From positions 1 through 64,000 of IMG/VR virus record IMGVR_UViG_3300043409_001505: a stretch of 64,000 nt of DNA, one strand, 5' to 3'. Numbering within the stretch: the stretch's first letter is position 1; each line of letters starts with the position of its first letter. The notes under the pieces were generated by a model, which saw nothing but the letters and a program-made list of their open reading frames with translations, was not told the origin of the DNA and did no database searches. Origin of the DNA: a virus. The translations under genes and the position numbers were made by a program. This document shows positions 12,610-55,634 of the stretch, in pieces.

Positions 12610-14075
12610 TCAATTTCGTTTAAAACCACAGCTTCAGTACTTAGTATAACTTTAGCTACAGATACGGCGTTCTCTAATGCACACCTAGTAACTTTAAGTG
12701 GGTCTATAATATTTTTATCAAACATATCTGTTAATACAGGAATTGCTAAAATATCACAGGGTGTATTTATTGCTTTTAAAATTTCTAATTCAATTGATGG
12801 ACTATATAAACCTTTCATGGACTTTGCAAAATTCTGACCTGCAAAATACAAAGCCAATCCTCCACCTTGAACAATTCCTTCTTCTAATGCGCAAGCTACT
12901 GCTTTAACTGCATCATCATATCTATCAAAACGTTCTTTCATTTCAAGTTCCGATTTACCACCAACTTTAATAATAGATATTTTACCTTTTAGATATTCAA
13001 TTCTTTGTTTAACTAAATCTTTATCGTATTCTGTTAATTCCGCATTTTTAGATAATTCATTTAGAACTTCTAATTTATCAGTAATATCAATATTATCATC
13101 TTTAACCAATATACTATTATTCTTAGATATTTTACAAGATTGTAATTTACCAAGAATGTTTGTGTTATAAATTTTATACAAATCTGTAATCAAAGTACTT
13201 CCTGTAAAGTCGCATAAGTCTTGCAATAGGTCTTTACGGTGTTTAGAGAAGCCTGGAGCTTTAATAACACATATAGGTAATGTTTGGGATAGAACAAAAG
13301 TTTCAAGCTTTCTAAGAGCTTGTTCGTGAATATCCTCAACAATTATCAATAATGAATTATTGGGTTGCTGTGTTAATTCTAATACACTTCTAAAGTTTTC
13401 TAATTTCTCTAACTTACCATCAATAATTAAAGTATTAACATTTGTAAATTCACAAATACCTTTGGATTGATTTGTGATAAAATGTTTAGAAAAATAACTT
13501 ACTGGAAGTGACATTCCTGGTAAAGTATCTAACACATCTTCTGTATTAAAACTCTCTTCAATCTTAACTATATCAGAATGATTATAAGCCTGTTGAATAA
13601 GTTCACCAATCTGTAAGTCATTATTAGCAGATATACTAGCAACGTGTTTAATATCTTCATGTTTTAACTCCCGTGAATTAATTTTTAATTGTTCAATAAC
13701 TTTTGGTATAATCTCATCAAAAGCTTTATTAATATCAACTGTATTGAGGTCTTTTAAATTGTTGACAAATGCTGTAGCTAATACAGTTGAGGTTGAAGTT
13801 CCGTCTCCAGCTTCCTCTACAGTTTTCTTAGCCGCTTCTCTAAGTAATTGTACACCTATATTTTCAATAGGATCTTTTAGTGTTATACTGTTTATAACGC
13901 TGACACCATCTTTGGTCACTTTATATTGACCAAATTTACTTGCGTCACTTATAATAACAGTTTTACCATTAGGACCTAGTGTCGCAGAAACAGCCTTACA
14001 AGCTTTATTAATACCTGATAATAACTTATCTCTAACTTCTTTACTAAATGTAATTTCTTCTATCATATTATTCAT
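12597..14075 (-). CDS. groEL: Phage-encoded GroEL-type (group I) chaperonin
   Basis: At 492 aa it is somewhat shorter than bacterial GroEL (about 545 aa) but clearly homologous throughout. The nucleotide-binding motifs are intact: LGPNGKTV near 34-40, VTKDGVSV near 53-60 (GroEL Asp52 region), AGDGTSTSTVLA near 89-100 (Asp87 region), and a DDA-VKAV-CALEEGIVQGGG stretch corresponding to the Asp398 and GGG region. The apical domain is more divergent and the Gly-Met tail is absent. It would fold virion proteins in the cytoplasm, probably as a double ring. A GroES-like gene lies 0.6 kb upstream in the same operon. Confidence 0.93.
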   Translation of the reverse strand: MNNMIEEITFSKEVRDKLLSGINKACKAVSATLGPNGKTVIISDASKFGQYKVTKDGVSVINSITLKDPIENIGVQLLREAAKKTVEEAGDGTSTSTVLATAFVNNLKDLNTVDINKAFDEIIPKVIEQLKINSRELKHEDIKHVASISANNDLQIGELIQQAYNHSDIVKIEESFNTEDVLDTLPGMSLPVSYFSKHFITNQSKGICEFTNVNTLIIDGKLEKLENFRSVLELTQQPNNSLLIIVEDIHEQALRKLETFVLSQTLPICVIKAPGFSKHRKDLLQDLCDFTGSTLITDLYKIYNTNILGKLQSCKISKNNSILVKDDNIDITDKLEVLNELSKNAELTEYDKDLVKQRIEYLKGKISIIKVGGKSELEMKERFDRYDDAVKAVACALEEGIVQGGGLALYFAGQNFAKSMKGLYSPSIELEILKAINTPCDILAIPVLTDMFDKNIIDPLKVTRCALENAVSVAKVILSTEAVVLNEIEWRE

Positions 14076-22129: not shown

Positions 22130-22212
22130 AGTCAGGTGGCGTAATTGGATAAAGCAAGGTGATGCAGTAGACCCTGCCACCTCAGATACAGGTTCGAATC
22201 CTGTCCTGACTA
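22130..22212 (+). tRNA. tRNA-like element with 16-nt anticodon loop
   Basis: The acceptor AGTCAGG/CCTGACT (7 bp, discriminator A) and the T-arm ACAGG-TTCGAAT-CCTGT are perfect. The D-loop AATTGGATA is canonical, though the D-stem has one mismatch. The anticodon stem AGGTG/CACCT is perfect but closes 16 nt instead of 7, and inside these GCAG-TAGACC-CTGC forms another small hairpin. No normal anticodon can be assigned (a UGCA would read as Cys). It is either an interrupted or modified tRNA, or a tRNA mimic. Confidence 0.7.
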
Positions 22213-22242
22213 CAACAATTATTATTAACTAAAACAAATATT

Positions 22243-36019: not shown

Positions 36020-36853
36020 ATGAAAAGAACAAGAGAAAATGTATTACAAATGTATAAAGAATATACAAATGGTAGTACAAGTCAAGAATTAGATAAAAAA
36101 TATAAAACAAATGTTTATTATTTATTTAAAAAACACAATTTAAAAAGTAGAACTACTTCTGAATCAGTATTGTTAAATCGAAAAAATAAAATTAATTTAA
36201 AATATAATTTTAGCAATATAAATAATTCTGAAGAAGCTTATATTGTAGGTTTATTTTTAGCAGATGGTTATGTTGGTAAACATCAATTGGGTTTAAAATT
36301 AAAAAAATCAGATAAAGAAATAGTAAATAAAATTAAAAATTATTTTTCTGAAGAAATTAAACTACAAGAAGATAATAATACTTTTGGTTTTGTAGTGTCT
36401 TCAATGAAAGCTTGTGAAAATGCAATAAATTTAGGTATTTTAAGAAATAAAACAGATAAAGAAATGATAATTCCTGAAATGGAAGTTAAATACTATTCTG
36501 ATTTCATTAGAGGATTTTTTGATGGAGATGGTACAGTTTTTAAATGTAATAATAAATATTTAAAAAGTAATATTTGTTCTCCTAAAATAGAAATTCTAAT
36601 TAAAATACAAGAAATTTTAACAAATAATAATATATTTTCTACTATAAATAAAGAAAGTCGAATAGGTAAAACGTTTATTTTACCTCAAGGAAATTCTATA
36701 ATTGGTACTATGGATATGTATCGATTATATATTAGAAAAAAAGAAGATTTGAAAAGATTTTATTATTTTTTATATAATGATTGTGATTTTTTATTAAAAA
36801 GAAAAAAAGAAATTTTTGACAATAATTTTGAAATGTTAACAAAGTTAAAATAA
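36020..36853 (+). CDS. LAGLIDADG homing endonuclease of intron 1
   Basis: The 277-aa protein has an N-terminal helix-turn-helix (residues about 1-40, NVLQMYKEYTNGSTSQELDKKY) and two LAGLIDADG helices, AYIVGLFLADGYVG (about 75-88) and FIRGFFDGDGTVF (about 168-180). Both supply the acidic metal-binding residue. It cuts intronless alleles of the helicase gene and so spreads the intron. It lies wholly in the intron and has its own -7 promoter element. Confidence 0.92.
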   Translation: MKRTRENVLQMYKEYTNGSTSQELDKKYKTNVYYLFKKHNLKSRTTSESVLLNRKNKINLKYNFSNINNSEEAYIVGLFLADGYVGKHQLGLKLKKSDKEIVNKIKNYFSEEIKLQEDNNTFGFVVSSMKACENAINLGILRNKTDKEMIIPEMEVKYYSDFIRGFFDGDGTVFKCNNKYLKSNICSPKIEILIKIQEILTNNNIFSTINKESRIGKTFILPQGNSIIGTMDMYRLYIRKKEDLKRFYYFLYNDCDFLLKRKKEIFDNNFEMLTKLK

Positions 36854-37356: not shown

Positions 37357-38256
37357 ATGGTAATAGAAGAAAGAATCGCCAAATCACAAACATTGTATGA
37401 TTTAGGTAAAAATGATGCTGAGATAGCAAGAGAATTGAATTGTAATAGTGAAACTATCAGACAATGGAGAATTAAAAATGATTATCCTAAAAATTTTAAA
37501 TATTCTAATTTACACAAAATAAATGTAGAAATATTAAAAGAGTTAGTAGAAAATGGATTTAAAGATTCTGAAATTGCAAATATGCTAAAGGTAAGTGTAG
37601 ACGGGGTTTATGCAAGTAGATTAAGGAATAATATTCAAAGAGAACCTTTTAATATCGCTAAAAATATAGAAGCAACTGAAAGACAAAGAGCTGTGTTAAT
37701 AGGATGTTTATTAGGGGACGGTTCTTTATTAAAAGGAAAAAATAGTATTAATCCAAGATTTAAATGTGAACACGGAGTTAAACAAAAAGAATACTGCTTT
37801 TATAAATATGAAATATTAAAGTCATTAAATATGAATTTTAAATATTGTAAAAGAAGTATACCCGATAAAAGAAATGGTATATTTTATGAAAGTTATTATA
37901 TAGAAAGTTTAGCAAACCCGTATTATTTAGAAATTTATAATAATTTATATTTTAATAAAACTAAGAAAATTACAGAATATATTTTAAAAGATTTCAACGA
38001 AGAATCATTAGCCATAATGTTTATGGACGACGGTTGTAAAATAAATAAAACAATAAGTATTGCAACAAATTGTTTTAGTAAAGAAGAGTTGATTTTATTT
38101 ACTAGTTTTTTAAAATTTAAATTTAATTTAAATTTTACTATAACTAAAACAAATACTATTTATTTAAAAACTGAAGACTTAAAAATATTTATTGCTATAA
38201 CTTTTCCTTATTTACATGAGAGTATGTATTACAAAATTGGTTTACAAATAATATAA
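37357..38256 (+). CDS. LAGLIDADG homing endonuclease of intron 2
   Basis: The 299-aa protein has two N-terminal helix-turn-helix segments (residues about 8-30, DLGKNDAEIARELNCNSETI, and 50-75, GFKDSEIANMLKVSVDGVYA). A LAGLIDADG-type endonuclease domain follows with LIGCLLGDGSLL (about 118-130) and IMFMDDGCKI (about 222-231). It differs from the intron 1 enzyme, so the two introns were acquired separately. It acts by double-strand cleavage of the intronless target. Confidence 0.9.
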   Translation: MVIEERIAKSQTLYDLGKNDAEIARELNCNSETIRQWRIKNDYPKNFKYSNLHKINVEILKELVENGFKDSEIANMLKVSVDGVYASRLRNNIQREPFNIAKNIEATERQRAVLIGCLLGDGSLLKGKNSINPRFKCEHGVKQKEYCFYKYEILKSLNMNFKYCKRSIPDKRNGIFYESYYIESLANPYYLEIYNNLYFNKTKKITEYILKDFNEESLAIMFMDDGCKINKTISIATNCFSKEELILFTSFLKFKFNLNFTITKTNTIYLKTEDLKIFIAITFPYLHESMYYKIGLQII

Positions 38257-41379: not shown

Positions 41380-41961
41380 ATGAAAAATTTATATTTCGCT
41401 TATGGTTCTAACATGGGTGTAGAACAGATGAAAAAAAGATGCCCAGATTCACTATTAATCGGAAAAGGTTTTATAACAAATCATAAACTTTGTTTTCCTC
41501 AAATAGCAGTAACTAGAGGTTTGTTAGGAGTTGCAGGTATTCGAGAAGGAATTGAAACTGATGAAGTTCATGGTTTAATTTACGAACTAACAGATAAAGA
41601 TTTAGAATTATTACATACTTTTGAAGGTTATGATAAAGATTCTATATCTAATTCAAGTTATTTTCCTAAACAAGTCAAGTTCCATCTACATGATAATGTT
41701 TCAAACACCTATACATTACAAGATTCGCAAGTTATAATTTATCAATCTAATTTTGATAACGGTGATGATTTTTACGTATCCAGTGATTATTTATTATTAA
41801 TGATTAAACCTATGATTAAATATGGTTTAGATAGTGACTATATCTTGAAGATAATAGAAAAAGCCAAGGCTAATCCAAAACCTTCTTTGAGAGTTAAGTT
41901 GAATAAATTAAGAACTGCGAAAATATTGACAATTTTGAAAATAATCTTTAATGTAAAATAG
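41380..41961 (+). CDS. Gamma-glutamylcyclotransferase-like protein (GGCT/AIG2 fold), copy 1
   Basis: The N-terminus FAYGSNM (residues 5-11) is the diagnostic GGCT loop that binds the gamma-glutamyl group. A beta-barrel follows with GVAGIREG, VHGLIYELTDKDLELLHTFEGYD and the acidic residue expected for catalysis. The family opens gamma-glutamyl bonds to 5-oxoproline or, in relatives, other isopeptides. The C-terminus adds about 60 residues. It opens the amide-bond enzyme island (41.4-52.2 kb). Confidence 0.85.
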   Translation: MKNLYFAYGSNMGVEQMKKRCPDSLLIGKGFITNHKLCFPQIAVTRGLLGVAGIREGIETDEVHGLIYELTDKDLELLHTFEGYDKDSISNSSYFPKQVKFHLHDNVSNTYTLQDSQVIIYQSNFDNGDDFYVSSDYLLLMIKPMIKYGLDSDYILKIIEKAKANPKPSLRVKLNKLRTAKILTILKIIFNVK

Positions 41962-42987
41962 ATGTTCAATCTAAATGATAATAAACCGTTAATATCTAAG
42001 TCTGAAATATTGAAACATTTTAATGAATTAGAAATATTTCAATATTATATAGATGATAAAGTAATGTTAGGTAAAGCAATATTATCTCCACTAAGACGTG
42101 AAAAGAATCCCTCATTTGGCTTCTTTGTTGGGGAAGGTAATGAAATATGTTTTAATGATTTTAAGCTTGGAAAAGGTGATTTTATACAGTTTATAAGATT
42201 AAGAAACGGTTTGACATATTTTGAAGCTTTAAGTAAAATTGCAAATGATTTCAATCTTCAAGATAATTATGTCTGTAAAAAATATACTAAAGAAGGTGAA
42301 GATAAAGCTAAAACTAAAATCATTAAGGAAGATGTTTTATCTAAATATACAAAATCTGAATTAGGTAAAAAAGCTAGAGAGTGGCAATCACATGATGTAC
42401 TGTTTTGGAGACAATTTGGTATAGGTAAAGAAACATTAGATTTTTTTAATGTACAACCTATAAGTTTTATATTTATAGGAGATAAATGTTTTCCTGCAGA
42501 TAAATACGCTTATTGTTTTATAGAAACTAAAGATGGAGTTGAAACATATAAAATATATCAACCCTTTAGTGAAAATTATAAATGGATTAATAACCATGAT
42601 GAATCAGTTTGGCAAGGTTGGTCTCAATTACCAGAATCTGGAGAAATTTTAATAATCACCAAATCATTAAAAGATGTAATGTCTTTATATGAAGTAGCTA
42701 AATTACCAGCAATTTCAATGCAAGCAGAAAATATGTTACCAAAAAGACATGTGTTTCAACAATTGGAATCTAGGTTTAAAAGTATTGAGTTACTATATGA
42801 TAACGATTTTGATAAAAATCCTAATTGGGGTAGAGTATTTGCAGATAAATTTGCTAAAGAATTTGGATTGTTGGATAGTTTCATCCCAGATAAATATCAA
42901 TCTAAAGATTTTTCAGATTTGATTAAAAATTATGGTAAAGAACAAGCAAAACATATATTATTTTACGAAACATTAATACCTTTTTAA
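41962..42987 (+). CDS. DNA primase (DnaG-type, TOPRIM)
   Basis: The 341-aa protein starts directly after the previous stop. The N-terminal domain (LSPLRREKNPSFGFFVGEGNEICFNDF) is the usual phage primase nucleic-acid binding part, without the Cys-rich zinc ribbon of DnaG. The TOPRIM core has GEILIITKSLKDVMSLY (about 224) and LLYDNDFDKNPNWGR (about 275). The normal Glu of the first TOPRIM motif is replaced by Lys (TKSLKD), as in some phage primase relatives. It makes primers for the replication fork. Confidence 0.85.
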   Translation: MFNLNDNKPLISKSEILKHFNELEIFQYYIDDKVMLGKAILSPLRREKNPSFGFFVGEGNEICFNDFKLGKGDFIQFIRLRNGLTYFEALSKIANDFNLQDNYVCKKYTKEGEDKAKTKIIKEDVLSKYTKSELGKKAREWQSHDVLFWRQFGIGKETLDFFNVQPISFIFIGDKCFPADKYAYCFIETKDGVETYKIYQPFSENYKWINNHDESVWQGWSQLPESGEILIITKSLKDVMSLYEVAKLPAISMQAENMLPKRHVFQQLESRFKSIELLYDNDFDKNPNWGRVFADKFAKEFGLLDSFIPDKYQSKDFSDLIKNYGKEQAKHILFYETLIPF

Positions 42988-43025
42988 AAAAATAAATAAA
43001 AATATTAACAAATAAATAAAAAATT

Positions 43026-43322
43026 ATGAAAAATATAGAATTAACAGAAGAACATAAAGTTGAATTGTTAGAAATGTGTAAAGTATTATTTCCTGAATAT
43101 GTAATATATCTAGCAGATGATGACGGATTTATAGAAGGAGAGCAGTGGGTTGGAGATCAAAATATGGGAGAAGATAGACCTGTAAATGAATTTAATATTC
43201 ATTGGTTTGAATTTTGTATGACTTATTTAATAAATAAATTAGAACTTGAATATACTTCTATTATAGTTTTAACAGAAAATCATCCAGTAGATTATTTATA
43301 TGAAGAATTTAAAAAGTTATGA
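43026..43322 (+). CDS. Hypothetical acidic protein (98 aa)
   Basis: A 98-aa acidic protein with a Trp-rich centre (EGEQWVGDQ... NIHWFEF). Its stop overlaps the next ATG by 4 nt. It sits between two GGCT-like genes and the primase. No family was recognised. Confidence 0.55.
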   Translation: MKNIELTEEHKVELLEMCKVLFPEYVIYLADDDGFIEGEQWVGDQNMGEDRPVNEFNIHWFEFCMTYLINKLELEYTSIIVLTENHPVDYLYEEFKKL

Positions 43323-43837
43323 GAAATATTAATAAAAGATCTGATGATTATAAAACCAGAGCTGAAAAAAAGAAAGAAAAGAACGAATTAAAAAGACAAT
43401 CGAAAATGGAAAAAAAATATTTAGTTGGTTTATATGACGATTATCGTGTAAACGGTAGTTTAAATACATCGTTAATCAGAACATCTTGCAAATTAATTGG
43501 AACATTTTCAACGGAACCCAATTATGAAATGATAGATATTGACAATGGGGATTCTTGCATTGTTAAAACCGATGGTAACTATTCTATTAAAGTTGAGGTT
43601 TGGGAAATACCTGAATCTTATGTAGATAAAATTGAAGATGTTTATAATTATTATACATTTTATCAAGAATATCCACAAGATTATAAAAAACAAACTGTTT
43701 TAACTCCTTTTGGAGAAGTTACAATGTATTTTGCAGATTGTTTAGAGTCTGCAGGAGAGATTGTAATTAGTGGTGATTGGATCGAACATTTAAATTGTAA
43801 AAAAGTAAAGAGTAATAAAAAAGAAAATGTATTATGA
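43319..43837 (+). CDS. GGCT-like protein, copy 2 (divergent, likely inactive)
   Basis: After a basic N-terminal extension (about 30 residues), the region KKYLVGLYDDYRVNGSL aligns with KKYLVAVYGSLRKSMHN of the next gene, and both have GTFSTEPNYE or GTFSTEPKYT and later FGEV/WGKA and SGDWIEHLN/SGDWVEYKN. The YGSL loop that binds gamma-glutamyl groups is replaced by YDDY, so catalysis is doubtful. It is a tandem paralogue that may have become a binding protein. Confidence 0.75.
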   Translation: MRNINKRSDDYKTRAEKKKEKNELKRQSKMEKKYLVGLYDDYRVNGSLNTSLIRTSCKLIGTFSTEPNYEMIDIDNGDSCIVKTDGNYSIKVEVWEIPESYVDKIEDVYNYYTFYQEYPQDYKKQTVLTPFGEVTMYFADCLESAGEIVISGDWIEHLNCKKVKSNKKENVL

Positions 43838-44241
43838 AAAAATATTTAGTAGCCGTTTATGGAAGCCTTCGTAAATCAATGCACAATTATCAATATTATT
43901 TATCAAATTCTGAATATAAAGGTACGTTTTCAACAGAACCTAAATATACTTTACATTCATTGGGTTCATTTCCAGGTTTAAAAACTAATGGTAATGCTGC
44001 TATTGTAATGGAAGTTTATGAAGTTGATGAACAAACTTTAAATAGGTTAAACCAACTGGAAGGATATTATCCTGAAGAAACTCCAACTTTTTATGATAGA
44101 ATTGAAATTAATACTCCTTGGGGTAAAGCTTTTACATATACTTATGTAAACCCTTTATCAAAAGATTCTATTATAGAATCTGGCGATTGGGTTGAATACA
44201 AAAATGAGGTTAAATCGTGGTCAAGTGTAACAAATAATTAA
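43834..44241 (+). CDS. Gamma-glutamylcyclotransferase-like protein (copy 3)
   Basis: At 135 aa this is a minimal AIG2/GGCT-fold protein with AVYGSLRKSMHNYQY (residues 6-20), PGLK near 49, MEVYEVDEQTLNRLNQLEGYYPE with the expected catalytic Glu, and DRIEINTPWGKAFTYTY. It overlaps copy 2 by 4 nt. It would cleave gamma-glutamyl amines or peptides. It sits just before the amidotransferase/ATP-grasp genes. Confidence 0.88.
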   Translation: MKKYLVAVYGSLRKSMHNYQYYLSNSEYKGTFSTEPKYTLHSLGSFPGLKTNGNAAIVMEVYEVDEQTLNRLNQLEGYYPEETPTFYDRIEINTPWGKAFTYTYVNPLSKDSIIESGDWVEYKNEVKSWSSVTNN

Positions 44242-44261
44242 AAAAATAAATTAAAAAAAAT

Positions 44262-44957
44262 ATGAATAATATAAAAAAGATCGCAATTGTGGGACATTTC
44301 ACGGGGGAAAATAGTTTTGGAATTTCTAAACCATATTTATTCTTTTGGCAACAATTTGGAGAAGTATCTCTAATTTCACCATTTGAAAAACACGTAAGAG
44401 ATATAGATTTATTAGTTATGCCTGGAGGACCTGATGTAGATCCTTATAGATACTTATCTTCTGAAGAAGATACTCATATATTTACAGGTAACCCTTGTAT
44501 GCAAAAGGAGAGATTTGATAGATTTCTGTTACCTAAATATATGGAAGCTAATATACCAATATTTGCTACTTGTAGAGGAATGCAATCAATGTATGTTACA
44601 TTAGGGGGTAAGCTTAATCAACATATGTCACACGAAACTAATCCATCACATGATGGTGCTAAATTGATGCACGGTATTACTTTTGAAAATCAACATCTTG
44701 TTCCAGGATTTACAGAAATTACACAACATCAACCTGGTGAATATAAAATTAATAGTAGACATCATCAAACTGTAAACGAAGAAACTAAACCTGATATTGT
44801 AACTATTTTAGCTAGACACGATAAAGATAATGAAATTGAGTTTGCAACAACGTTTCCATTTTATCCATGTCATCTTACCCAGCATCATGTGGAAGACAGT
44901 AGAGATCCTGCTACAGTATTCTTAATCAATCATTTATTAAATTTAAAAAATGAATAA
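44262..44957 (+). CDS. Class I glutamine amidotransferase-like hydrolase (peptidase C26 type), 1
   Basis: The 231-aa protein shows the C26/GATase-I layout: MPGGPDVDP (about residue 48), nucleophile region FATCRGMQSMY (Cys about 105), GKLNQHM, SRHHQTV and the catalytic His-Glu pair as HHVED near 209. This family includes gamma-glutamyl-gamma-aminobutyrate hydrolase. It can hydrolyse gamma-glutamyl bonds or supply ammonia to a partner ligase. Its ATG is preceded by an A-rich leader and its stop overlaps the next start. Confidence 0.88.
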   Translation: MNNIKKIAIVGHFTGENSFGISKPYLFFWQQFGEVSLISPFEKHVRDIDLLVMPGGPDVDPYRYLSSEEDTHIFTGNPCMQKERFDRFLLPKYMEANIPIFATCRGMQSMYVTLGGKLNQHMSHETNPSHDGAKLMHGITFENQHLVPGFTEITQHQPGEYKINSRHHQTVNEETKPDIVTILARHDKDNEIEFATTFPFYPCHLTQHHVEDSRDPATVFLINHLLNLKNE

Positions 44958-45481
44958 TGGAAGAACAAGTAATAACATTTGAAACAGCTAAATTAGCTAA
45001 AGAAAAAGGTTTTAATATTTTATCACATTCTTATTATTTTGAAGACGGTGAATTTAAAGAACACTCTTTAACTGGTACTAATGGATACTACGGAGAAGAG
45101 TATGAATTTAATTTATCAGAATTTAATGAGAATTGGAATGATAAATGGTTAACAAAAAAATCAGGAGATAGGTGTTTTGGATGCTCTAAAGATAAAGGTT
45201 ATTTTGAAACTTATTCAGCACCAACACAATCATTATTACAAAAATGGTTAAGAGATAATTATAACTGTTTCATTGATATTTTACCACATAGAGACGGTGA
45301 TTCTAAAAATAAACAATGGAAAAGTAAAAAAGATGTATTTTGGAGTGTGGAAGTTGATTATTATGGTAAAGATTTTAAAATAGAATTAACAGATGATGCT
45401 GATTTTACACAACACTTTAACAATAGTTATGAAGAAGCTTTAGAAATAGGTTTGCAAAAAGCATTAAAATTAATAAAATAA
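44957..45481 (+). CDS. Bacteroidota-phage family protein, paralogue of 33504-34067
   Basis: It begins ITFETAKLAKEKGFNILSHSYY, contains APTQSLLQKWLRDNYNCFIDI and ends YEEALEIGLQKALKLIK, the same three blocks as the 187-aa protein at 33504. The family is widespread but uncharacterised. Here it is embedded between an amidotransferase and the ATP-grasp gene with one-base overlaps. Confidence 0.75.
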   Translation: MEEQVITFETAKLAKEKGFNILSHSYYFEDGEFKEHSLTGTNGYYGEEYEFNLSEFNENWNDKWLTKKSGDRCFGCSKDKGYFETYSAPTQSLLQKWLRDNYNCFIDILPHRDGDSKNKQWKSKKDVFWSVEVDYYGKDFKIELTDDADFTQHFNNSYEEALEIGLQKALKLIK

Positions 45482-45482
45482 T

Positions 45483-46337
45483 ATGAATAAATTAAAAAAA
45501 TATAAGTTATTTAGACCTCTGATTTTATCACGTCATCCATCACACTCTATTTTAAGAGCTAAAAATCAAACATTACCATTATTACCATTTAGATCTGTAA
45601 TAAGACTTGGATCGTCAACAAGAACTGAAGGTAGATTGGAAATTAATACAACAGAAGCAGTTAAAAATTCCGCTTCTAAACTGTTAATGAAACAGAAGTT
45701 TACTGAAGCTGGAGTTAAAACGGCAAATTGGTTTACATATAATCACGGAGCTTTTAGAAAAGTTTTTAATGATGGAATATTTGATTTACACGGAGATATT
45801 ATTGGTAAAGAAGAATTACCTTTTCCATTAGTAGCAAAATCTCATTTTGGAAGTCGTGGAGTTGGTAATACTAAATTTAATAGTAAAGAAGAATTAGAAG
45901 CTTGGTTACCAAATAAAAATCTTAGTAATTATATATTTGAAGAATTTGTTAAAATGACTAGAGAATATAGATTACACGTAACCAAGTTTGGTTGTTTTTA
46001 TGCTTGTAGAAAATTAGTTAGAAACGATGCTCCAGAAGGTACTTGGCAACGTCACGACGATGTTTGTAATTGGGTATTAGAGGATAATCCGTCTTTTAAA
46101 AAACCTAAAAATTGGGATGACATTGTAACAGACTGTATTAAAGCGAAAGATGCTTTAGGTTTAGACATATGCGCATTTGACGTAGGTGTACAAGGTGCTG
46201 TCGATGGAGTTGAAAGAGAAGTTCCTGAATGGATTATATTTGAAAGTTGTAGTGCACCATCCTTTGGTGAAATTACAGGTCAAAAATATATTGAAATTTT
46301 ACCAAAATTATTAATTAATAAATATAACAATAAATAA
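45483..46337 (+). CDS. ATP-grasp ligase
   Basis: The 284-aa protein has ATP-grasp hallmarks: FPLVAKSHFGSRGVGN (ATP lysine and P-loop-like turn, about 119-134), YIFEEFVKMTREYRLHV (Glu and Arg, about 156-172), CAFDVGV (Mg-binding Asp, about 236) and FESCSAPSFGE (about 258). The last motif usually reads ExN. Here Asn is replaced by Cys, which may alter metal binding. ATP-grasp enzymes join a carboxylate to an amine through an acyl-phosphate, as in peptide or amide synthesis. It is the ligase partner of the island. Confidence 0.88.
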   Translation: MNKLKKYKLFRPLILSRHPSHSILRAKNQTLPLLPFRSVIRLGSSTRTEGRLEINTTEAVKNSASKLLMKQKFTEAGVKTANWFTYNHGAFRKVFNDGIFDLHGDIIGKEELPFPLVAKSHFGSRGVGNTKFNSKEELEAWLPNKNLSNYIFEEFVKMTREYRLHVTKFGCFYACRKLVRNDAPEGTWQRHDDVCNWVLEDNPSFKKPKNWDDIVTDCIKAKDALGLDICAFDVGVQGAVDGVEREVPEWIIFESCSAPSFGEITGQKYIEILPKLLINKYNNK

Positions 46338-46338
46338 T

Positions 46339-47418
46339 ATGCATCCAGATTTAGATAAATATATTAATGAATATGACATTACAAGCTCTACTAACAGACG
46401 AGCACTTAGTAAATTTTTACAAATGGGTATTAATCGTGAAATATACGATTCTATTACAGGTGATACTCATGATGATAAAGTTAACAATATTTATTTATAT
46501 TTATTAGATAAAGATAAAACAGTTCTCCCTATAGTAAAGAAACCTTTAAATATTGTAATTGCAGACGATACCTCGTCATTAGAGTATGTTTCATATTTAA
46601 ACTTATTTTATAACGTAACTGTTCATAAATCAAAAGAAGTTCTAGATCCAAGAGATATCGATTTAGTATTATTCACTGGTGGAGAGGATGTAGATCCTAA
46701 ACTATATAATGAGAAAGTTGGTTCACGTACGCATATTAATGTGAAACGAGATTCTAAAGAGTATGAGGTATTTGCTAGATTTGCAGGATATTCATTTTTA
46801 CTGGGAATATGTAGAGGATCTCAATTGTTAACTATCTTAAACGAAGGAAGGTTAATTCAACACGTAGGAGGTCATTGTAAAGATCATACAATAATTGTAA
46901 ATAAAAGTCAAAGATATAACATGACTTCAAGTCATCATCAAATGCTATATCCATTTGATTTAAATGAGGATCGTTATGAATTGATTGCATATTCTGAATT
47001 TTTTCAAAGTGACACATACCTTAATGGGAAAGATGAGGAAATTAAATTACCAAAAAATTTCCTAGAACCTGAAATTGTTTTTTACAATAAATATAATTCT
47101 CTATGTATACAAGGACATCCTGAATGGAACCATTGTGATCCTAGAACAAAGAATATGTGTTTAAATTTAATTGATAAATATTTAACAGAGTTTAATACTG
47201 TAAAACATTCAAAATTTAGAAATACAAATGATGGTATGGGTATTTATTCAAAAAAGTATGGCACAGTATCACAACCTTTAAAAGTTGATTTTATAAACAA
47301 CATTGCGTATTCCTCAAACACAATTGAAGTTACAGAAAAGTTAGAAATGAATGATGAAGATGAACTTGAAGAAATTTTAAATGAGTATGAAGAAGAGGAT
47401 TATACAGATTCATTTTAA
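46339..47418 (+). CDS. Class I glutamine amidotransferase-like protein, 2
   Basis: The 359-aa protein has an extra N-terminal domain of about 70 residues. The GATase-I core contains LFTGGEDVDPKLY (about 113), the nucleophile elbow LLGICRGSQLL (Cys about 157), HHQML and the catalytic pair QGHPEW (about 256). The C-terminus ends in an acidic stretch. It is related to but clearly distinct from the 231-aa enzyme upstream, and could feed ammonia to, or undo, the ATP-grasp/amidoligase reaction. Confidence 0.88.
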   Translation: MHPDLDKYINEYDITSSTNRRALSKFLQMGINREIYDSITGDTHDDKVNNIYLYLLDKDKTVLPIVKKPLNIVIADDTSSLEYVSYLNLFYNVTVHKSKEVLDPRDIDLVLFTGGEDVDPKLYNEKVGSRTHINVKRDSKEYEVFARFAGYSFLLGICRGSQLLTILNEGRLIQHVGGHCKDHTIIVNKSQRYNMTSSHHQMLYPFDLNEDRYELIAYSEFFQSDTYLNGKDEEIKLPKNFLEPEIVFYNKYNSLCIQGHPEWNHCDPRTKNMCLNLIDKYLTEFNTVKHSKFRNTNDGMGIYSKKYGTVSQPLKVDFINNIAYSSNTIEVTEKLEMNDEDELEEILNEYEEEDYTDSF

Positions 47419-47443
47419 TAAATTAAATACAATATAAAAATAT

Positions 47444-48256
47444 ATGAAAATAAATAATATCACTTTAGGCACAGATCCAGAGTTGTTTTTACAAAAAGAC
47501 AATAAAATTATTTCAGCAATTGGTAAAATAGGGGGTTCTAAATCGGAACCCCAACCGATTTCAAATGACGGTCATTTTATTCAAGAAGATAATGTTGCAA
47601 TTGAATATAACATTCCAGCTTGTAAGACAATTGATGATTGGGTATATCATCATAATTTTGTTAAAGATTATTTAGAAGTGTTAGTTTCAGGAATGGGTTG
47701 TACATTAGCAATTCAACCTATTGCAACATTAGAAGATTCAGAGTTAAACAACGATATCGCGCGCCTTGCGGGTTGTACCCCTGATTTCGATGTATGGAAC
47801 GAATGTGTTAATCAACCAGTAGATTTATCTATTACTAATAAGAGATCAGCAGGAGGTCACATCTCAATAGGTTGGGATGATTTTACACAAGAACAACAAT
47901 TAGATATAGTTAAAGCTATGGATGCTACAGTTGGTTTAGAATCTGTATTATTAGATTCTGATACTGAACGTAAAAAACTTTACGGTAAAGCAGGTTGTTT
48001 TAGATTTACCGCTTTTGGTATTGAATACAGAAGTTTATCTAATTTCTGGATTAAATCTGACGAGTCTTTAAAATGGGCTTGGAATACTACAATGAAAGCA
48101 ATTGATTTAGTTAATTCTGGTAAAATTGAAGAAGTTAAAGAATTAGGTAGTTATATTGTAGAAGCTATTAATACTAATAATATTGGATTAGCTGAAAAAT
48201 TACTAAATCAAATTAAAATAATTACTAATATTAAAACAGAAGTTTTAAATGGATAA
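47444..48256 (+). CDS. phiEco32-like amidoligase (type 2, COOH-NH2 ligase)
   Basis: The 270-aa protein begins with TLGTDPELFL (residues 7-16), then KIGGSKSEPQPI, VAIEYNIPAC, AGGHISIGWDDF (about 139) and FRFTAFGIEYRSLSNFW (about 186-202). These are the signature blocks of the phage amidoligase type 2 family, a glutamine-synthetase-like fold that forms amide bonds with ATP. The metal-binding acidic and His positions look intact. It follows the amidotransferase by 25 nt in the same operon. Confidence 0.92.
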   Translation: MKINNITLGTDPELFLQKDNKIISAIGKIGGSKSEPQPISNDGHFIQEDNVAIEYNIPACKTIDDWVYHHNFVKDYLEVLVSGMGCTLAIQPIATLEDSELNNDIARLAGCTPDFDVWNECVNQPVDLSITNKRSAGGHISIGWDDFTQEQQLDIVKAMDATVGLESVLLDSDTERKKLYGKAGCFRFTAFGIEYRSLSNFWIKSDESLKWAWNTTMKAIDLVNSGKIEEVKELGSYIVEAINTNNIGLAEKLLNQIKIITNIKTEVLNG

Positions 48257-48548
48257 TTTAGAAATTCCAATGTTATTAAAAAGATGTTTGACTTATGGTA
48301 TAATAATATCCCCATATCAATTAGATACGGTATTAAATGAATATAAAAATAGAGAAATTCCAGATAATATATTATCTAAATTAAATAAAATTGATTTAGA
48401 AAAATATGTAAAAGGGTTATGGTTATGTGGTCAAGAAATGTCAAGAGATTGGTCAAAAGGTTATGATCTTTTAAAAGAATTAGGATTTGAAGAAGTAAAA
48501 AGAACAATAGGTCATAGATCATTTATGAGCTTAATATTTAAAAAATAA
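48249..48548 (+). CDS. Hypothetical protein (99 aa) inside amidoligase operon
   Basis: A 99-aa helical protein that starts within the last codons of the amidoligase gene (8-nt overlap), containing LWLCGQEMSRDWSKGYDLLKELGF. No family was recognised. Its place suggests an accessory subunit. Confidence 0.6.
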   Translation: MDNLEIPMLLKRCLTYGIIISPYQLDTVLNEYKNREIPDNILSKLNKIDLEKYVKGLWLCGQEMSRDWSKGYDLLKELGFEEVKRTIGHRSFMSLIFKK

Positions 48549-48627
48549 ATTAAAAATGGTAAAAATAATTCTAATATTAGCATTATTACAATATATAAGT
48601 AACTTTCTATTTGGTTATAAATCAAAT

Positions 48628-50481
48628 ATGTTAGTTTGTGGAATTTTTGGACAATCAACAAATAAACCTGAAAACTTAGATGTCAACGGTGTTCATATTT
48701 TAGGTATTTATAATATTGAACGTGGTAAAATGTCTTGTGGATTATCTTGGGACGGTGACATTCAATATGGGATAGGTATTGATAAATTATATTCAGATTT
48801 TATAATAAATAGAGAAATCAAACCTACTAGAATACCAATTATGATTGGACATACTAGGCAACCTAGTTGGGGTTTTACAGTAACAGAGGACAATGCTCAT
48901 CCGTTTGGGTTCGGTACCAGTAACGATGGTGAAGGTTACGAAATGATTTTTTGCCATAATGGTACATTAAAGAATCATAAAGAATTGGCTGAAAAGTATA
49001 ATATTGAATTAACTGAAAAAGTTATGAAAGTTCATACAAACTGTAGGTATGAAGTAACTCGTGATAAAATCGATAGTGAGATATTAGGTGAAATATTATA
49101 TAAGACAAAAACATTTCATGTATTAAGTGATTATATTGGTGCAGCAGCTCTAGCTTGGACTTGGATCGATGAACCAAATAAACTATATTTATGGTCTGGT
49201 GCGTCTAAAATAACAAAAGGGTCGCTTAATCCTAATGAAACTGAAGAAAGACCTATGCACGTTTATTGTAAAGATAAAAATACGATGTTTTTCTCATCGT
49301 TAAAAAACAGTTTAGTTGTTTTAGGTGCAGATGTTAGAAGTAATACTCAAATAGACCCTAATACAGTTTATATCATTACAGATGGTGATTTTGAAAATGC
49401 TGAAAAGCATAAGGTTAGTAGAAAAAACGCTGGTCAAAGTGAAGAAACCATTTGGACTAATTCTTCAAAAAATAATAACCATTACAATGGTCGCGTTTTT
49501 GATGAATACGATGGAGATTACTGTGATTTACCTTTTTCATCTAAACAAAAAACCAATTTTACTACTACATCAAAAACACAATCTAAAACTACAGATTTTG
49601 TTTATAATGTAGAATCAGATAAACCATTAAAAACACTGGCGGAATATGAAGGTAAAGTTTATAGTAAAGGTTTACGTTTTTATAAAAATAATGAATTAAT
49701 TACAGGGATATACTTGTATATAAAAACTTGGGGATTTTTTTTCGCAGGTAAAACACAGCCTGAAGCGGTTGCGTATTTTGAATCGATAAAAAATACCAAC
49801 TTTAATACTTATAGAGGTGAATTTGGGAGTTTTTTTAAATCAAGTTTTATCCCATTTACAGATAAAGACAACGAAGTTCAATTTCATTATTTCAAAACAG
49901 GAGTGATGTTGAAAAGTTTACTAGATTATGTCCACGTTTTAGATTTTAACACTTCTGAAAAAGGTATTAATTCATATTTAGAGCTTCAAGTTTTATCACA
50001 TATATCAAAGCACCCAATAATAAACATGGATTCATCAGTACGTAACCCTCTTGTACGATTAGAAGATAAACCTTTTACAGGAAGTGTTTCAGAATTGGGA
50101 TTTGAAAAAGTGTATACTTTTAACAACGGTAATTTAGTCAAATGGTCTAAAAGAGCTGACTTGTTAGAAATCTCTAAACAAGTTCCACCTGTAATAACAT
50201 TACCTGCAACTACTGAAAAGAAAGTTCCTGAGAAAGATTTGTTTACTGAAGTTGTTTTAGATACTATAACAGATGAATATATAATAGAAGACAATTTAGA
50301 TGATGATTTTATTTCGGGATATATTTCAGAAATATTTGAGAAACATTCTGAAGACATTTCAGAAACCATTATTGAATTTTCTGAGTATAAAGACCACAAA
50401 TTAATCAAAGAGGCTTTAGAAACATTAAACTTAATCGATCGCTCCTTAGCGGAGTTTGTTGAAAAACCTAATAAAAAATAA
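48628..50481 (+). CDS. Class II glutamine amidotransferase (Ntn-type)
   Basis: The region CGIFGQS near the chosen start (MLVCGIFG at 48628) is the catalytic N-terminal Cys motif. Later come GHTRQPSWG, EDNAHPF and FCHNGTLKNH, the usual GATase-II core (Arg/Asn/Gly/Asp set) over about the first 200 residues. A 400-residue C-terminal part without recognised fold follows. Class II enzymes need Cys at the N-terminus, so at least MLV must be removed. An upstream in-frame ATG at 48556 would add a hydrophobic leader (MVKIILILALLQ) that could also be a cleaved propeptide or signal. It supplies ammonia to a synthase partner. Confidence 0.85.
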   Translation: MLVCGIFGQSTNKPENLDVNGVHILGIYNIERGKMSCGLSWDGDIQYGIGIDKLYSDFIINREIKPTRIPIMIGHTRQPSWGFTVTEDNAHPFGFGTSNDGEGYEMIFCHNGTLKNHKELAEKYNIELTEKVMKVHTNCRYEVTRDKIDSEILGEILYKTKTFHVLSDYIGAAALAWTWIDEPNKLYLWSGASKITKGSLNPNETEERPMHVYCKDKNTMFFSSLKNSLVVLGADVRSNTQIDPNTVYIITDGDFENAEKHKVSRKNAGQSEETIWTNSSKNNNHYNGRVFDEYDGDYCDLPFSSKQKTNFTTTSKTQSKTTDFVYNVESDKPLKTLAEYEGKVYSKGLRFYKNNELITGIYLYIKTWGFFFAGKTQPEAVAYFESIKNTNFNTYRGEFGSFFKSSFIPFTDKDNEVQFHYFKTGVMLKSLLDYVHVLDFNTSEKGINSYLELQVLSHISKHPIINMDSSVRNPLVRLEDKPFTGSVSELGFEKVYTFNNGNLVKWSKRADLLEISKQVPPVITLPATTEKKVPEKDLFTEVVLDTITDEYIIEDNLDDDFISGYISEIFEKHSEDISETIIEFSEYKDHKLIKEALETLNLIDRSLAEFVEKPNKK

Positions 50482-50482
50482 A

Positions 50483-52210
50483 ATGAGTGCAGAAAAAAAA
50501 GTAATTACAATAAAAGGGGAAAAGGTATTGATTTCTAAGTGCAGAAAATTTAACAAACTTTATTATAAAATAGGAGATCCTAAAATTAAAGACTCAGGTG
50601 ACTGTTATTTAATATCTGAAAAATATTATCGAGAAGAAACAGGTCAGATTGTTTACAATTATTCAATAAATGAATATGTATTAAAAAACGATAACCTTAT
50701 ATTCGGAGTAGTAGATGTCGATAACGATAATATTAATTTAGGATATTTTAACAATAACCCTTTTACTACAAAAATTCACACACCAACTACATCTTATGTA
50801 CTTTTAAATACAAACATTAAAGGTAATACTTATCGTGAAAATCTTTCAGATGGTGAGTTTTATCACATTCAGTTAAGACCTTCTTATAGTTTTAACGAAA
50901 TAAAATTCCCAACAAAGGATTATAAATATAGTTTACCTTATGACTCAAAGGGGATTGTATCATATAATTTACAAAAGTATAATCAAAATTATAACCCTGC
51001 AACATTAACAAATATTGAAAAAATATCCCCTTTATTAGGGGATTTGTCTTTTGGATTAGAATTTGAAACTACTAAAGGGTTTATACCAGATAGAATCTTA
51101 TATAAATATGGATTAATACCTTTAAGAGATGGTTCTATATCAGGTATTGAGTATGTTACTGTACCGATGACAGGTCAGAAAGGTTTAAGTTGTGTAGTGG
51201 ATGTTTTAGAGGAATTAGAAAAAAGGACTGTTTATGATGACGATTCATGCTCACTCCATCTTCATTTAGGAAATGTTCCTAGAACTGAAGAATTCATTTT
51301 AGCATTTTTTATTTTAAGTATGAAAATTCAAGATGAAATGTTTAAATTATTTCCAATATATAAAAAATATAATTTTGGTATTAAAAATAAAAACTATTCA
51401 TCACCACTACCTACATTTGAGATAATGTCTCAATTAGATTCAGTTATTGATAAAAATAATATTACTAAAAACTTTAATGTAGTATATAAATATTTGTCAA
51501 TGGGTCAAGATTTTAAAGCTGTTAATAATAGTCTTGAGAATGTTGTAAGTCATCCTCGTGATCAAAACGGTACTCAAAAATGGAATATTAGTACCAGATA
51601 TCATATTTTTAATATGATACCATTATTATTTGGTAATAAACAGACAATAGAATGTAGAATTCATACACCAACGTATGATGTAAATAAGATCATTCCGTTT
51701 ATATTAATGAATAGTTTATTAGTTAATTTTACAATTCAAAATCAATCTCAAATATTAAAAAAGTCTAACTTTCTAAACCAGGTAACATTGTTTGGTATTT
51801 TAGATTATCAAATGGAAACTTTTGATAATTCAATAATAAAAGATTTTAGAAATTTACTTCGTCATTATTTAATAAATAGAGCTAATTACTGTGAAAAACA
51901 AACGGTTTCAGGAAATATTTTAGGTACGGAGTCTAAAATACAAGTTCCAAATAATATTGATTGGAGAAAAATTAAACCTATCAATAATCCCGATCCTGTT
52001 ATAAATGAAACCCACGCTATGTTTGACTTCAATCCATTTGTTTATTATAATGAATTGGTTGCGGCTACTGAATACCAAAAGCCATCTAAATCTACAACCA
52101 TATCCGTCGACTCCTTTCACAATGAACAAGATAAACCGATTACTACTGAACTAATACCTACAGAACAGGTTGAACTTGATAACATTATAACGGAATGGCA
52201 AATGATTTGA
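50483..52210 (+). CDS. Amidoligase (PF12224-type glutamine-synthetase fold)
   Basis: I chose ATG 50483 (MSAEKKVITIKGEK), which lies 1 nt after the preceding stop. The 575-aa protein has the amidoligase core: LSFGLEFETTKGFIP (about 195), YGLIPLRDGSISGIEYVTVP (about 213), SCSLHLHLG (about 254) and later IECRIHTPT. This fold uses ATP to couple carboxylates to amines. It is a second, distantly related amidoligase, different from the type-2 enzyme at 47.4 kb. The N-terminal 180 residues are of unknown fold. Confidence 0.88.
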   Translation: MSAEKKVITIKGEKVLISKCRKFNKLYYKIGDPKIKDSGDCYLISEKYYREETGQIVYNYSINEYVLKNDNLIFGVVDVDNDNINLGYFNNNPFTTKIHTPTTSYVLLNTNIKGNTYRENLSDGEFYHIQLRPSYSFNEIKFPTKDYKYSLPYDSKGIVSYNLQKYNQNYNPATLTNIEKISPLLGDLSFGLEFETTKGFIPDRILYKYGLIPLRDGSISGIEYVTVPMTGQKGLSCVVDVLEELEKRTVYDDDSCSLHLHLGNVPRTEEFILAFFILSMKIQDEMFKLFPIYKKYNFGIKNKNYSSPLPTFEIMSQLDSVIDKNNITKNFNVVYKYLSMGQDFKAVNNSLENVVSHPRDQNGTQKWNISTRYHIFNMIPLLFGNKQTIECRIHTPTYDVNKIIPFILMNSLLVNFTIQNQSQILKKSNFLNQVTLFGILDYQMETFDNSIIKDFRNLLRHYLINRANYCEKQTVSGNILGTESKIQVPNNIDWRKIKPINNPDPVINETHAMFDFNPFVYYNELVAATEYQKPSKSTTISVDSFHNEQDKPITTELIPTEQVELDNIITEWQMI

Positions 52211-54899: not shown

Positions 54900-55634
54900 A
54901 TGAGTAAAATTACAGGTATATATAAAATAGAAAGTCCATCTGGACGAATCTATATAGGACAAGCTGTAGATATTACTAGACGATTCAAAGAATATAAAAA
55001 TATAAAAAAAAGTAAATTACAAATAAAATTACATCGATCTTTTAATAAATATGGTATCGAAAATCATAAATTTGAAATAGTTGAAGAAACAATTTCAAAA
55101 GATTTAAATAATAAAGAAAGATATTGGCAAGATTTTTATGAAGTAATTTCAAAAAAAGGATTAAATTGTACTTTAGTAAAATCAGATGATAGATCTGGTG
55201 TTTTAAATGAAGAAACTAAATTAAAAATTAGTTTAGCAAATACTGGAAATTTTCATAATGAGGAAACTCGTGCTAAAATGGGAATTAAAAATAAAGGTAG
55301 AATAGCATCTCAAGAAACCAGAGATAAAATGTCTAAATCTAGATTAGGTGTGAAATTATCTGAAGAACACGTAAAATCAATAAGTGATGGTAAAAAAGGA
55401 GTTTTATTTTCAGATGAACATAAACAAAATTTATCTAATAAAAAAATAGAAAGATTTAAAGATACAAGTAAACATCCTCGATCTAGAAAAGTTATTAATA
55501 CAGAAACTAATGAAATTTTTAATACAATTACAGAAGCTGCATTATCAATTAATGTAAAATGGCACACATTAGCAAATTGGTTAAAAAATTCACATAGAAA
55601 CAAAAGTAATCTAATATTTTTAAAAGATGAGTAA
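54900..55634 (+). CDS. GIY-YIG homing endonuclease with NUMOD3 repeats
   Basis: The 244-aa protein starts with GIYKIESPSGRIYIGQ (residues 5-20) and has the ERYWQDFYE block. NUMOD3-type repeats (NEETKLKISLANTG, NEETRAKMGIKNKG, SQETRDKMSKSRLG, SEEHVKSISDGKKG, SDEHKQNL) and a C-terminal NUMOD1 helix-turn-helix (NTITEAALSINVKWHTLANWLK) follow. It lies outside any intron, wedged between two genes. It is a longer relative of the 16710-17243 endonuclease. Confidence 0.93.
   Translation: MSKITGIYKIESPSGRIYIGQAVDITRRFKEYKNIKKSKLQIKLHRSFNKYGIENHKFEIVEETISKDLNNKERYWQDFYEVISKKGLNCTLVKSDDRSGVLNEETKLKISLANTGNFHNEETRAKMGIKNKGRIASQETRDKMSKSRLGVKLSEEHVKSISDGKKGVLFSDEHKQNLSNKKIERFKDTSKHPRSRKVINTETNEIFNTITEAALSINVKWHTLANWLKNSHRNKSNLIFLKDE

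What the first reader, a model, noticed from the sequence alone, without database searches (positions are those of the whole stretch)
41380..52210. Island of two amidoligases, ATP-grasp, three amidotransferases and three GGCT-like genes
Within 10.8 kb the phage encodes two unrelated amidoligases, an ATP-grasp ligase, two class I amidotransferase-like enzymes, one class II amidotransferase and three GGCT-fold proteins, in overlapping reading frames. Sequence shows the motifs listed for each gene. Known biochemistry of the families is formation and breakage of gamma-glutamyl and other amide bonds, and comparative genomics has predicted that phage amidoligase clusters make peptide-like modifications. 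The inference is that this phage builds, and with GGCT and C26 enzymes can remove, an amide-linked tag on DNA, protein or cell wall. Two different amidoligases in one cluster is unusual.
Basis: partly seen in the sequence, partly recalled or inferred. Interest (0 to 1): 0.88.

Follow-up and report, generated by a model that had tools for sequence, protein, structure and literature searches.

The report
Known phage amidoligase module, crAss-like version
A crAss-like phage carries a well-conserved set of enzymes that join and cut gamma-glutamyl-type amide bonds; the set has been known since 2009 in phages such as phiEco32 and LUZ24, its target has never been shown, and the evidence here points away from DNA and weakly towards the cell envelope.

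Summary
The genes are real and mostly named correctly. The island holds an ATP-grasp ligase, a type-2 COOH-NH2 ligase with a glutamine-synthetase fold, an Amidoligase_2-like protein, a class II glutaminase, two C26 (gamma-glutamyl hydrolase family) proteins and two intact GGCTs. The third GGCT (43319) is a conserved paralogue without the catalytic residues. Two claims fail. First, two amidoligases together are the rule: all four core genes occur in 43 of 43 well-flanked relatives found through the ligase and in 44 of 46 found through the ATP-grasp, and in phiEco32 and LUZ24, where the set is published as a 'peptidoglycan modification cassette'. Second, a DNA tag is unlikely: phage HTN1 carries the full set, was reported cut by 11 of 16 restriction enzymes, and exactly 11 of the 16 have sites in its genome. 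The window is a crAss-like phage. New here: a single transmembrane segment directly before the catalytic Cys of the class II glutaminase, in 38 of 114 distinct relatives, with 73 K/R against 4 D/E on the inner side. Best reading: a membrane-proximal pathway that adds and trims gamma-glutamyl or aminoacyl amides, most likely on an envelope component. The chemistry class is well supported; the acceptor is inferred.

The parts
41380..41961 (+). GGCT1: gamma-glutamyl cyclotransferase of a different subfamily; YGSN and FEGY motifs intact; an add-on, absent next to the primase in close relatives
   Evidence: Pfam GGACT 27.1 bits, above cut-off; no blastp hit at 1e-3 in close relatives; only weak hits elsewhere
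41962..42987 (+). TOPRIM primase; a replication gene inside the island, not part of the amide chemistry, but a frequent neighbour of the module
   Evidence: phrog_12622 5e-63; primase beside the module in most crAss-like loci
43319..43837 (+). GGCT2: tandem paralogue of GGCT3 with YGS to YDD and the catalytic Glu lost; predicted pseudoenzyme, kept in close relatives
   Evidence: GGACT 21.2 bits, below cut-off; alignment
43834..44241 (+). GGCT3: gamma-glutamyl(amine) cyclotransferase with intact YGS and LEGY motifs
   Evidence: GGACT 2e-19, phrog_2520 1.3e-23; alignment
44262..44957 (+). C26a: class I glutamine amidotransferase fold, gamma-glutamyl hydrolase family (ATCRG Cys elbow)
   Evidence: Peptidase_C26 9.7e-24; nearest solved structures Lin1909 and PuuD
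44957..45481 (+). Small protein of unknown function, phrog_12005; found in or beside the module of 14 distinct phages
45483..46337 (+). ATP-grasp carboxylate-amine ligase, amino-acid ligase branch; Cys256 in place of the usual Asn of the ExN motif; core gene
   Evidence: phrog_2599 1.2e-24; family profile against the PDB; residue counts
46339..47418 (+). C26b: second gamma-glutamyl hydrolase-like protein (GICRG, GHPE) with extra N- and C-terminal regions
   Evidence: Peptidase_C26 1.8e-13, phrog_7218 1.3e-29; motifs
47444..48256 (+). COOH-NH2 ligase type 2, glutamine synthetase / glutamate-cysteine ligase fold; core gene
   Evidence: phrog_3815 1.6e-68; model pLDDT 95; Foldseek to GS 3.2e-5, prob 1.0
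48556..50481 (+). Class II glutamine amidotransferase: TM helix 2-19, catalytic Cys28, Ntn domain about 28-295, second domain about 360-530 of unknown fold, C-terminal helices; core gene
   Evidence: GATase_6 5.8e-7; profile aligns Cys28 with Cys1 of PurF and GlmS; model and Foldseek; TM analysis
48556..48636 (+). N-terminal membrane segment (27 codons) directly before the catalytic Cys
   Evidence: present in 38 of 114 distinct relatives; 73 K/R against 4 D/E in the last 12 residues before Cys; cleanly absent in others, no cryptic copy upstream in the close relatives
50483..52210 (+). Amidoligase_2-like (type 1) amidoligase, re-annotated to start at ATG 50483; core gene
   Evidence: phrog_2443 2.2e-34; PF12224 19.3 bits, below cut-off; invariant E193, E195, H259, H261, E390, R392; start

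Best explanation
This is the crAss-like version of the phiEco32/LUZ24-type phage amidoligase module. Shown by sequence, fold and conservation: an ATP-grasp ligase and two glutamine-synthetase-fold ligases that can use ATP to join a carboxylate to an amine; a class II glutaminase (Ntn type); and C26 and GGCT proteins of families that hydrolyse or cyclise gamma-glutamyl bonds. Inferred: the ligases act in sequence to attach gamma-glutamyl or aminoacyl units to one acceptor, the class II enzyme releases ammonia from glutamine or removes a gamma-glutamyl group, and C26 and GGCT trim or recycle gamma-Glu. Inferred with less certainty: the acceptor is at the inner face of the inner membrane, most likely a cell-wall precursor or another envelope component, so that infected cells carry an altered envelope (superinfection exclusion or prepared lysis).
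For: All four core genes are present in 43/43 and 44/46 distinct relatives with at least 6 kb on both sides of the query gene, median span 6.3 kb, and in phi14:2, Lbo-JY46, cr108_1, LUZ24, Cronobacter 009, QDWS535, phiEco32 and Bas90. GS/GCL fold of the type-2 ligase; amino-acid-ligase ATP-grasp; Cys1-type glutaminase whose fold matches also include EgtC, which in ergothioneine synthesis removes gamma-Glu (its role from general knowledge); C26 nearest to PuuD-type hydrolases. Membrane clue: a single TM segment before the glutaminase Cys with a strong inside-positive pattern, and almost no TM in the other module proteins. Host clue: every host named in the listed rows for the type-2 ligase is Gram-negative. 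Published predictions of peptidoglycan modification: PMC5498523, PMC11945000.
Against: No substrate or product has been measured. If the membrane segment is cleaved off to free Cys1, as Ntn chemistry requires, it cannot anchor the mature enzyme; and two thirds of relatives lack it. The Gram-negative bias may reflect which phage lineages were sampled. Gordonclarkvirinae, which carry the module, resist restriction-modification for an unexplained reason (PMC11990801), which keeps a DNA role alive there. The GS fold of the Amidoligase_2-like protein rests on its family name, not on a model made here.
Confidence: 0.5

Rival explanations
1. Small-molecule pathway with gamma-glutamyl as a temporary handle: the ligases build a metabolite on a gamma-glutamyl carrier and GGCT, C26 and the EgtC-like Ntn domain remove the handle, as in butirosin, ergothioneine or putrescine (Puu) pathways.
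For: Several enzyme classes that act on gamma-glutamyl bonds sit beside three ligases. GGCT and C26 copy number varies between relatives, as expected for trimming steps.
Against: No redox, PLP, radical or transport enzymes stand out among the conserved neighbours; why a lytic phage would need the product is unclear.
Confidence: 0.22
2. Protein tagging: a RimK-like ATP-grasp and the GS-fold ligases add glutamyl or amino-acid tails to a host or virion protein such as a ribosomal protein or RNA polymerase, and C26/GGCT trim the tails.
For: The ATP-grasp is RimK/cyanophycin-synthetase-like. Pairs of divergent ~300-aa proteins lie upstream of the type-2 ligase in LUZ24, phiEco32, Cronobacter 009 and cr108_1 and could be targets or adaptors.
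Against: The window and phi14:2 lack these pairs; no Gram-positive host appears in the listed rows although ribosomes and polymerase are universal.
Confidence: 0.18
3. DNA tag: the module attaches an amide-linked group to bases of the phage genome and protects it from restriction.
For: Module beside replication genes. Gordonclarkvirinae resist RM systems (PMC11990801) although Bas90 has 13 EcoRI, 35 EcoRV and 8 EcoKI sites.
Against: HTN1 has the full module; its DNA was reported sensitive to 11 of 16 enzymes (PMC11945000) and exactly 11 of the 16 have a site. Nanopore of Rembedalsseter, same genus as module-bearing UFV-P2, showed only nicks. A membrane segment makes little sense for a DNA enzyme.
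Confidence: 0.08
4. Scavenging: the hydrolases break host gamma-glutamyl compounds for nitrogen or glutamate and the ligases are peripheral.
For: Extra GGCT and C26 copies in this lineage.
Against: The constant part of the module is the ligases and the glutaminase, not the hydrolases: all-four core 43/43 against GGCT 28/43.
Confidence: 0.05

Closest known systems
phiEco32-type amidoligase module (Iyer et al. 2009; phiEco32 gp77-gp88; BASEL phages such as Bas90)
   Same: Type-2 COOH-NH2 ligase, amidoligase, class II GATase, ATP-grasp and GGCT beside the primase
   Different: Different gene order; has gp85 and the gp87/gp88 pair; the window adds two C26 genes, extra GGCTs and the TM segment on the class II enzyme
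'Peptidoglycan modification cassette' of LUZ24-, UFV-P2-, HTN1- and RIO-1/HP1-like phages (PMC3890496, PMC5498523, PMC11945000)
   Same: Same core genes in one block
   Different: Different gene order; carries the gp14/gp15 pair and gp17; class II enzyme starts at Met-Cys
Cellulophaga phage phi14:2 gp047-gp052 and uncultured phage cr108_1 (Crassvirales, Steigviridae)
   Same: Primase-adjacent crAss-like module with collinear core; phi14:2 also has the TM segment on the class II enzyme
   Different: One GGCT and no C26 in phi14:2; one C26 and no GGCT in cr108_1
PuuA/PuuD, EgtA/EgtC and BtrJ/BtrG gamma-glutamyl handle pathways
   Same: Works like: ATP-dependent ligase adds gamma-Glu and a C26, Ntn or GGCT enzyme removes it (roles from general knowledge; folds)
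   Different: No shared pathway or known substrate; similarity only at fold or superfamily level

Membership tests
phiEco32/LUZ24-type amidoligase module | Type-2 COOH-NH2 ligase | tested here: met
   phrog_3815 1.6e-68; GS/GCL fold
phiEco32/LUZ24-type amidoligase module | Second amidoligase (Amidoligase_2, type 1) | tested here: met
   phrog_2443 2.2e-34; invariant acidic, His and Arg residues in 45 relatives
phiEco32/LUZ24-type amidoligase module | ATP-grasp ligase and class II GATase in the same block | tested here: met
phiEco32/LUZ24-type amidoligase module | GGCT in or near the block | tested here: met
phiEco32/LUZ24-type amidoligase module | Proven modification of peptidoglycan or another acceptor | not testable with these tools
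   No experimental demonstration found in the papers searched
Pfam PF14395 COOH-NH2_lig | Match to the Pfam model at its cut-off | tested here: not met
   No match at E<=1 in the record
Pfam PF12224 Amidoligase_2 | Score above the curated cut-off of 22 bits | tested here: not met
   19.3 bits, E=0.0012
Active GGCT (43319 protein) | YGS(L/N) loop and catalytic Glu | tested here: not met
   YDD and no LEGY Glu
Active GGCT (43834 and 41380 proteins) | YGS(L/N) loop and catalytic Glu | tested here: met
   YGSLR/LEGY and YGSN/FEGY
Class II (Ntn) glutamine amidotransferase | Catalytic Cys at the mature N terminus | tested here: inconclusive
   Cys28 aligns with Cys1, but 27 residues with a TM helix precede it; processing not testable here
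Bacterial lipoprotein | Lipobox [LVI][ASTVI][GAS]C after an uncharged h-region | tested here: not met
   Residue -1 is often N, Y or F and Lys/Arg lie between TM and Cys
Crassvirales phage | crAss-like terminase, portal and capsid | tested here: met
   TerL hits 141 records, all listed ones crAss-like; phrog_6681, phrog_6547, phrog_11589

The most novel reading that the evidence does not exclude
In crAss-like phages the module's class II glutamine amidotransferase is made as a membrane-inserted proenzyme: a single reverse-anchor helix ends a few residues before the catalytic Cys (K/R-rich, N-x-L-x|Cys), so insertion and cleavage would switch on glutaminase activity at the inner face of the membrane, where the module would modify an envelope precursor. 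No class II glutaminase with a transmembrane propeptide is known to me.
Probability: 0.25. Interest if true: 0.65.

Novelty: new member of a known kind. Interest (0 to 1): 0.36.

Why it matters
The module is in hundreds of phages (306 records for the type-2 ligase among 50,697) and its acceptor is a long-standing open question. This analysis removes the claim that the island is exceptional, gives evidence against a DNA tag, and adds a structural clue (membrane segment) that points to a place in the cell. Cultured phages carrying the set exist (Bas90 on an E. coli K-12 laboratory strain, LUZ24-like phages, phi14:2), so the question can be tested now.

Tried and rejected
DNA similarity search for the island in public phages: nothing useful. 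Plasmids: no match. Bacterial and archaeal genomes for context: 6 hits, all in MAG contigs, most of them short, so the ligase looks phage-specific and gives no metabolic neighbours. PDB sequence search with the two amidoligase profiles: none. The second domain of the class II enzyme: no PDB fold match seen, only the glutaminase domain matched. Lipoprotein reading of the N terminus: rejected, no lipobox and charges before Cys. Cryptic TM upstream of TM-less close relatives: none. Restriction-site avoidance as the reason for Kuravirus RM resistance: rejected for EcoRI, EcoRV and EcoKI in Bas90. Accessory neighbours as clue to the acceptor: mostly replication genes. Iyer et al. 2009 was not held; it is cited through later papers.
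Full report
What is there. The window is 64 kb of a 65,421-bp IMG/VR virus record. Its terminase, portal and major head proteins are crAss-like, so this is a Crassvirales phage. The island 41380-52210 reads, in order: GGCT1, primase, a small ORF, GGCT2, GGCT3, C26a, a phrog_12005 protein, ATP-grasp, C26b, type-2 COOH-NH2 ligase, a small ORF, class II GATase, amidoligase. The ATP-grasp has no meaningful Pfam hit but its family profile hits cyanophycin synthetase, D-Ala-D-Ala ligase and RimK. The type-2 ligase is missed by PF14395, but its model (mean pLDDT 95) matches glutamine synthetases and plant glutamate-cysteine ligase. The class II protein aligns its Cys28 with Cys1 of PurF and GlmS, and its model matches the GlmS glutaminase domain and also EgtC.

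Corrections to the finding. GGCT2 (43319) has lost both the YGS loop and the catalytic Glu, and the same holds in close relatives, so it is a retained paralogue, probably without activity. GGCT1 belongs to another subfamily and is not found next to the primase in close relatives. The two class I proteins are C26 family, the first nearest to PuuD-type hydrolases, so they more likely cut gamma-glutamyl bonds than donate ammonia. The amidoligase starts at 50483.

Is it unusual? No. I gathered relatives from viral contigs with the type-2 ligase and, independently, with the ATP-grasp, and scanned all loci with profiles of each gene. Among distinct loci with at least 6 kb on both sides of the query gene, the four core genes (two amidoligases, ATP-grasp, class II GATase) are all present in 43 of 43 and 44 of 46, median span 6.3 kb. 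GGCT and C26 vary in number. The same set occurs in phi14:2, cr108_1, Leptolyngbya phage Lbo-JY46, LUZ24, Cronobacter phage 009, Alcaligenes phage QDWS535, phiEco32 and BASEL phage Bas90, GGCT and C26 varying. The literature calls it a peptidoglycan modification cassette and traces the idea to Iyer et al. and Hardies et al. 2013 (PMC5498523; PMC11945000; LUZ24-like annotation in PMC3890496). I found no biochemical test.

DNA tag. Phage U17 (vB_PaeP_HTN1) carries the whole module. Its authors challenged its DNA with 16 restriction enzymes and report sensitivity to 11 (PMC11945000). Counting sites in its genome, exactly 11 of the 16 have at least one; SmaI, PstI, SalI, NotI and XhoI have none. 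The text does not list which 11 cut, and it names one enzyme as HpaI in the methods and HpaII in the results (both have sites), so the match is of counts. The simplest reading is that every enzyme with a site cuts. Nanopore sequencing of Rembedalsseter, of the same genus as the module-bearing UFV-P2, showed nicks and no modification (PMC11780129); that Rembedalsseter itself has the module was not checked. Against this, Gordonclarkvirinae resist RM systems without a known cause (PMC11990801), and site avoidance does not explain it in Bas90 for EcoRI, EcoRV and EcoKI. Transfer from HTN1 to the window is by homology.

Membrane clue. In the window, several close relatives and phi14:2, the class II enzyme begins with a hydrophobic segment that ends a few residues before the catalytic Cys. 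Of 114 distinct class II sequences, 38 have it, 26-48 residues long and mostly 26-31. Leu is at -2 in 34 and Asn at -4 in 24; the last 12 residues before Cys carry 73 K/R against 4 D/E, the first eight 14 against 7. By the positive-inside rule the catalytic domain is cytoplasmic. On a quick tree the trait needs at least 9 changes on well-supported branches (22 by parsimony), and it lies only in the part of the tree that holds the crAss-like phages. Relatives without it start directly at Met-Cys, with no hidden copy upstream in the close relatives. Other module proteins almost never have such a segment. Because Ntn chemistry needs a free Cys1, the segment should be cleaved, which makes it look like a membrane-inserted propeptide. 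That step is inference.

Host range. Every host named in the listed type-2 ligase records is Gram-negative, among them Pseudomonas, Escherichia, Vibrio, Aeromonas, Proteus and Rhizobium, plus a cyanobacterium; Cellulophaga phage phi14:2 also carries it. This fits an envelope target but lineage sampling could also explain it, and not every record was listed.

Mechanism. Shown: families, folds, residue conservation, co-occurrence. Inferred: the ligases build a gamma-glutamyl or aminoacyl amide on one acceptor, the class II enzyme supplies ammonia or removes gamma-Glu, and C26 and GGCT trim. Least certain: that the acceptor is an envelope component. My split is envelope about 0.5, metabolite 0.22, protein 0.18, DNA 0.08, scavenging 0.05.

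Verdict. A new member of a known phage module, with lineage-specific extras (dead GGCT paralogue, second C26, membrane-segment class II enzyme).

Noticed in passing
window 12597-14075 (-): GroEL-like chaperonin (Cpn60_TCP1 1.6e-39) directly beside the large terminase of a crAss-like phage; nearest phage relatives are Flavobacterium, Bacteroides and Cellulophaga phages.
   Followed up: partly
window 45483-46337: The ATP-grasp has Cys256 where 39 of 44 aligned sequences have the Asn of the ExN motif; 5 of 44 have the Cys.
   Followed up: partly
window 36020-36853, 37357-38256, 54900-55634: Two LAGLIDADG endonucleases and one GIY-YIG/NUMOD3 endonuclease around the replication genes.
   Followed up: no
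L008 8609-10483, L009 10001-10811, L005 6414-8177: The type-2 ligase (L008, L009) and C26a (L005) are split into pieces in close relatives, with about 1.1 kb between the pieces in L008 and L005; possible introns or homing insertions.
   Followed up: no
L014 4067-6004, L017 31130-33311, L015 6145-7976, L013 7150-9051: A pair of very divergent ~300-400-aa proteins of unknown function sits upstream of the type-2 ligase in several phage groups; absent in the window and phi14:2.
   Followed up: partly
L179/L180 (Bas90): A kuravirus from an RM-resistant subfamily has 13 EcoRI, 35 EcoRV and 8 EcoKI sites, so its resistance is not site avoidance; only 1 BamHI site against about 13 expected.
   Followed up: partly
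L178 (HTN1): No SmaI, PstI, SalI or XhoI sites in 45 kb where about 12-14 of each are expected: strong avoidance of several palindromes.
   Followed up: no
L175 1699-2529 (UFV-P2): A Band_7 (SPFH, membrane-scaffold) protein is annotated a few genes upstream of the module.
   Followed up: no
window 22130-22213: ARAGORN reports a tRNA-like gene with a four-base anticodon (gcag), type unknown.
   Followed up: no
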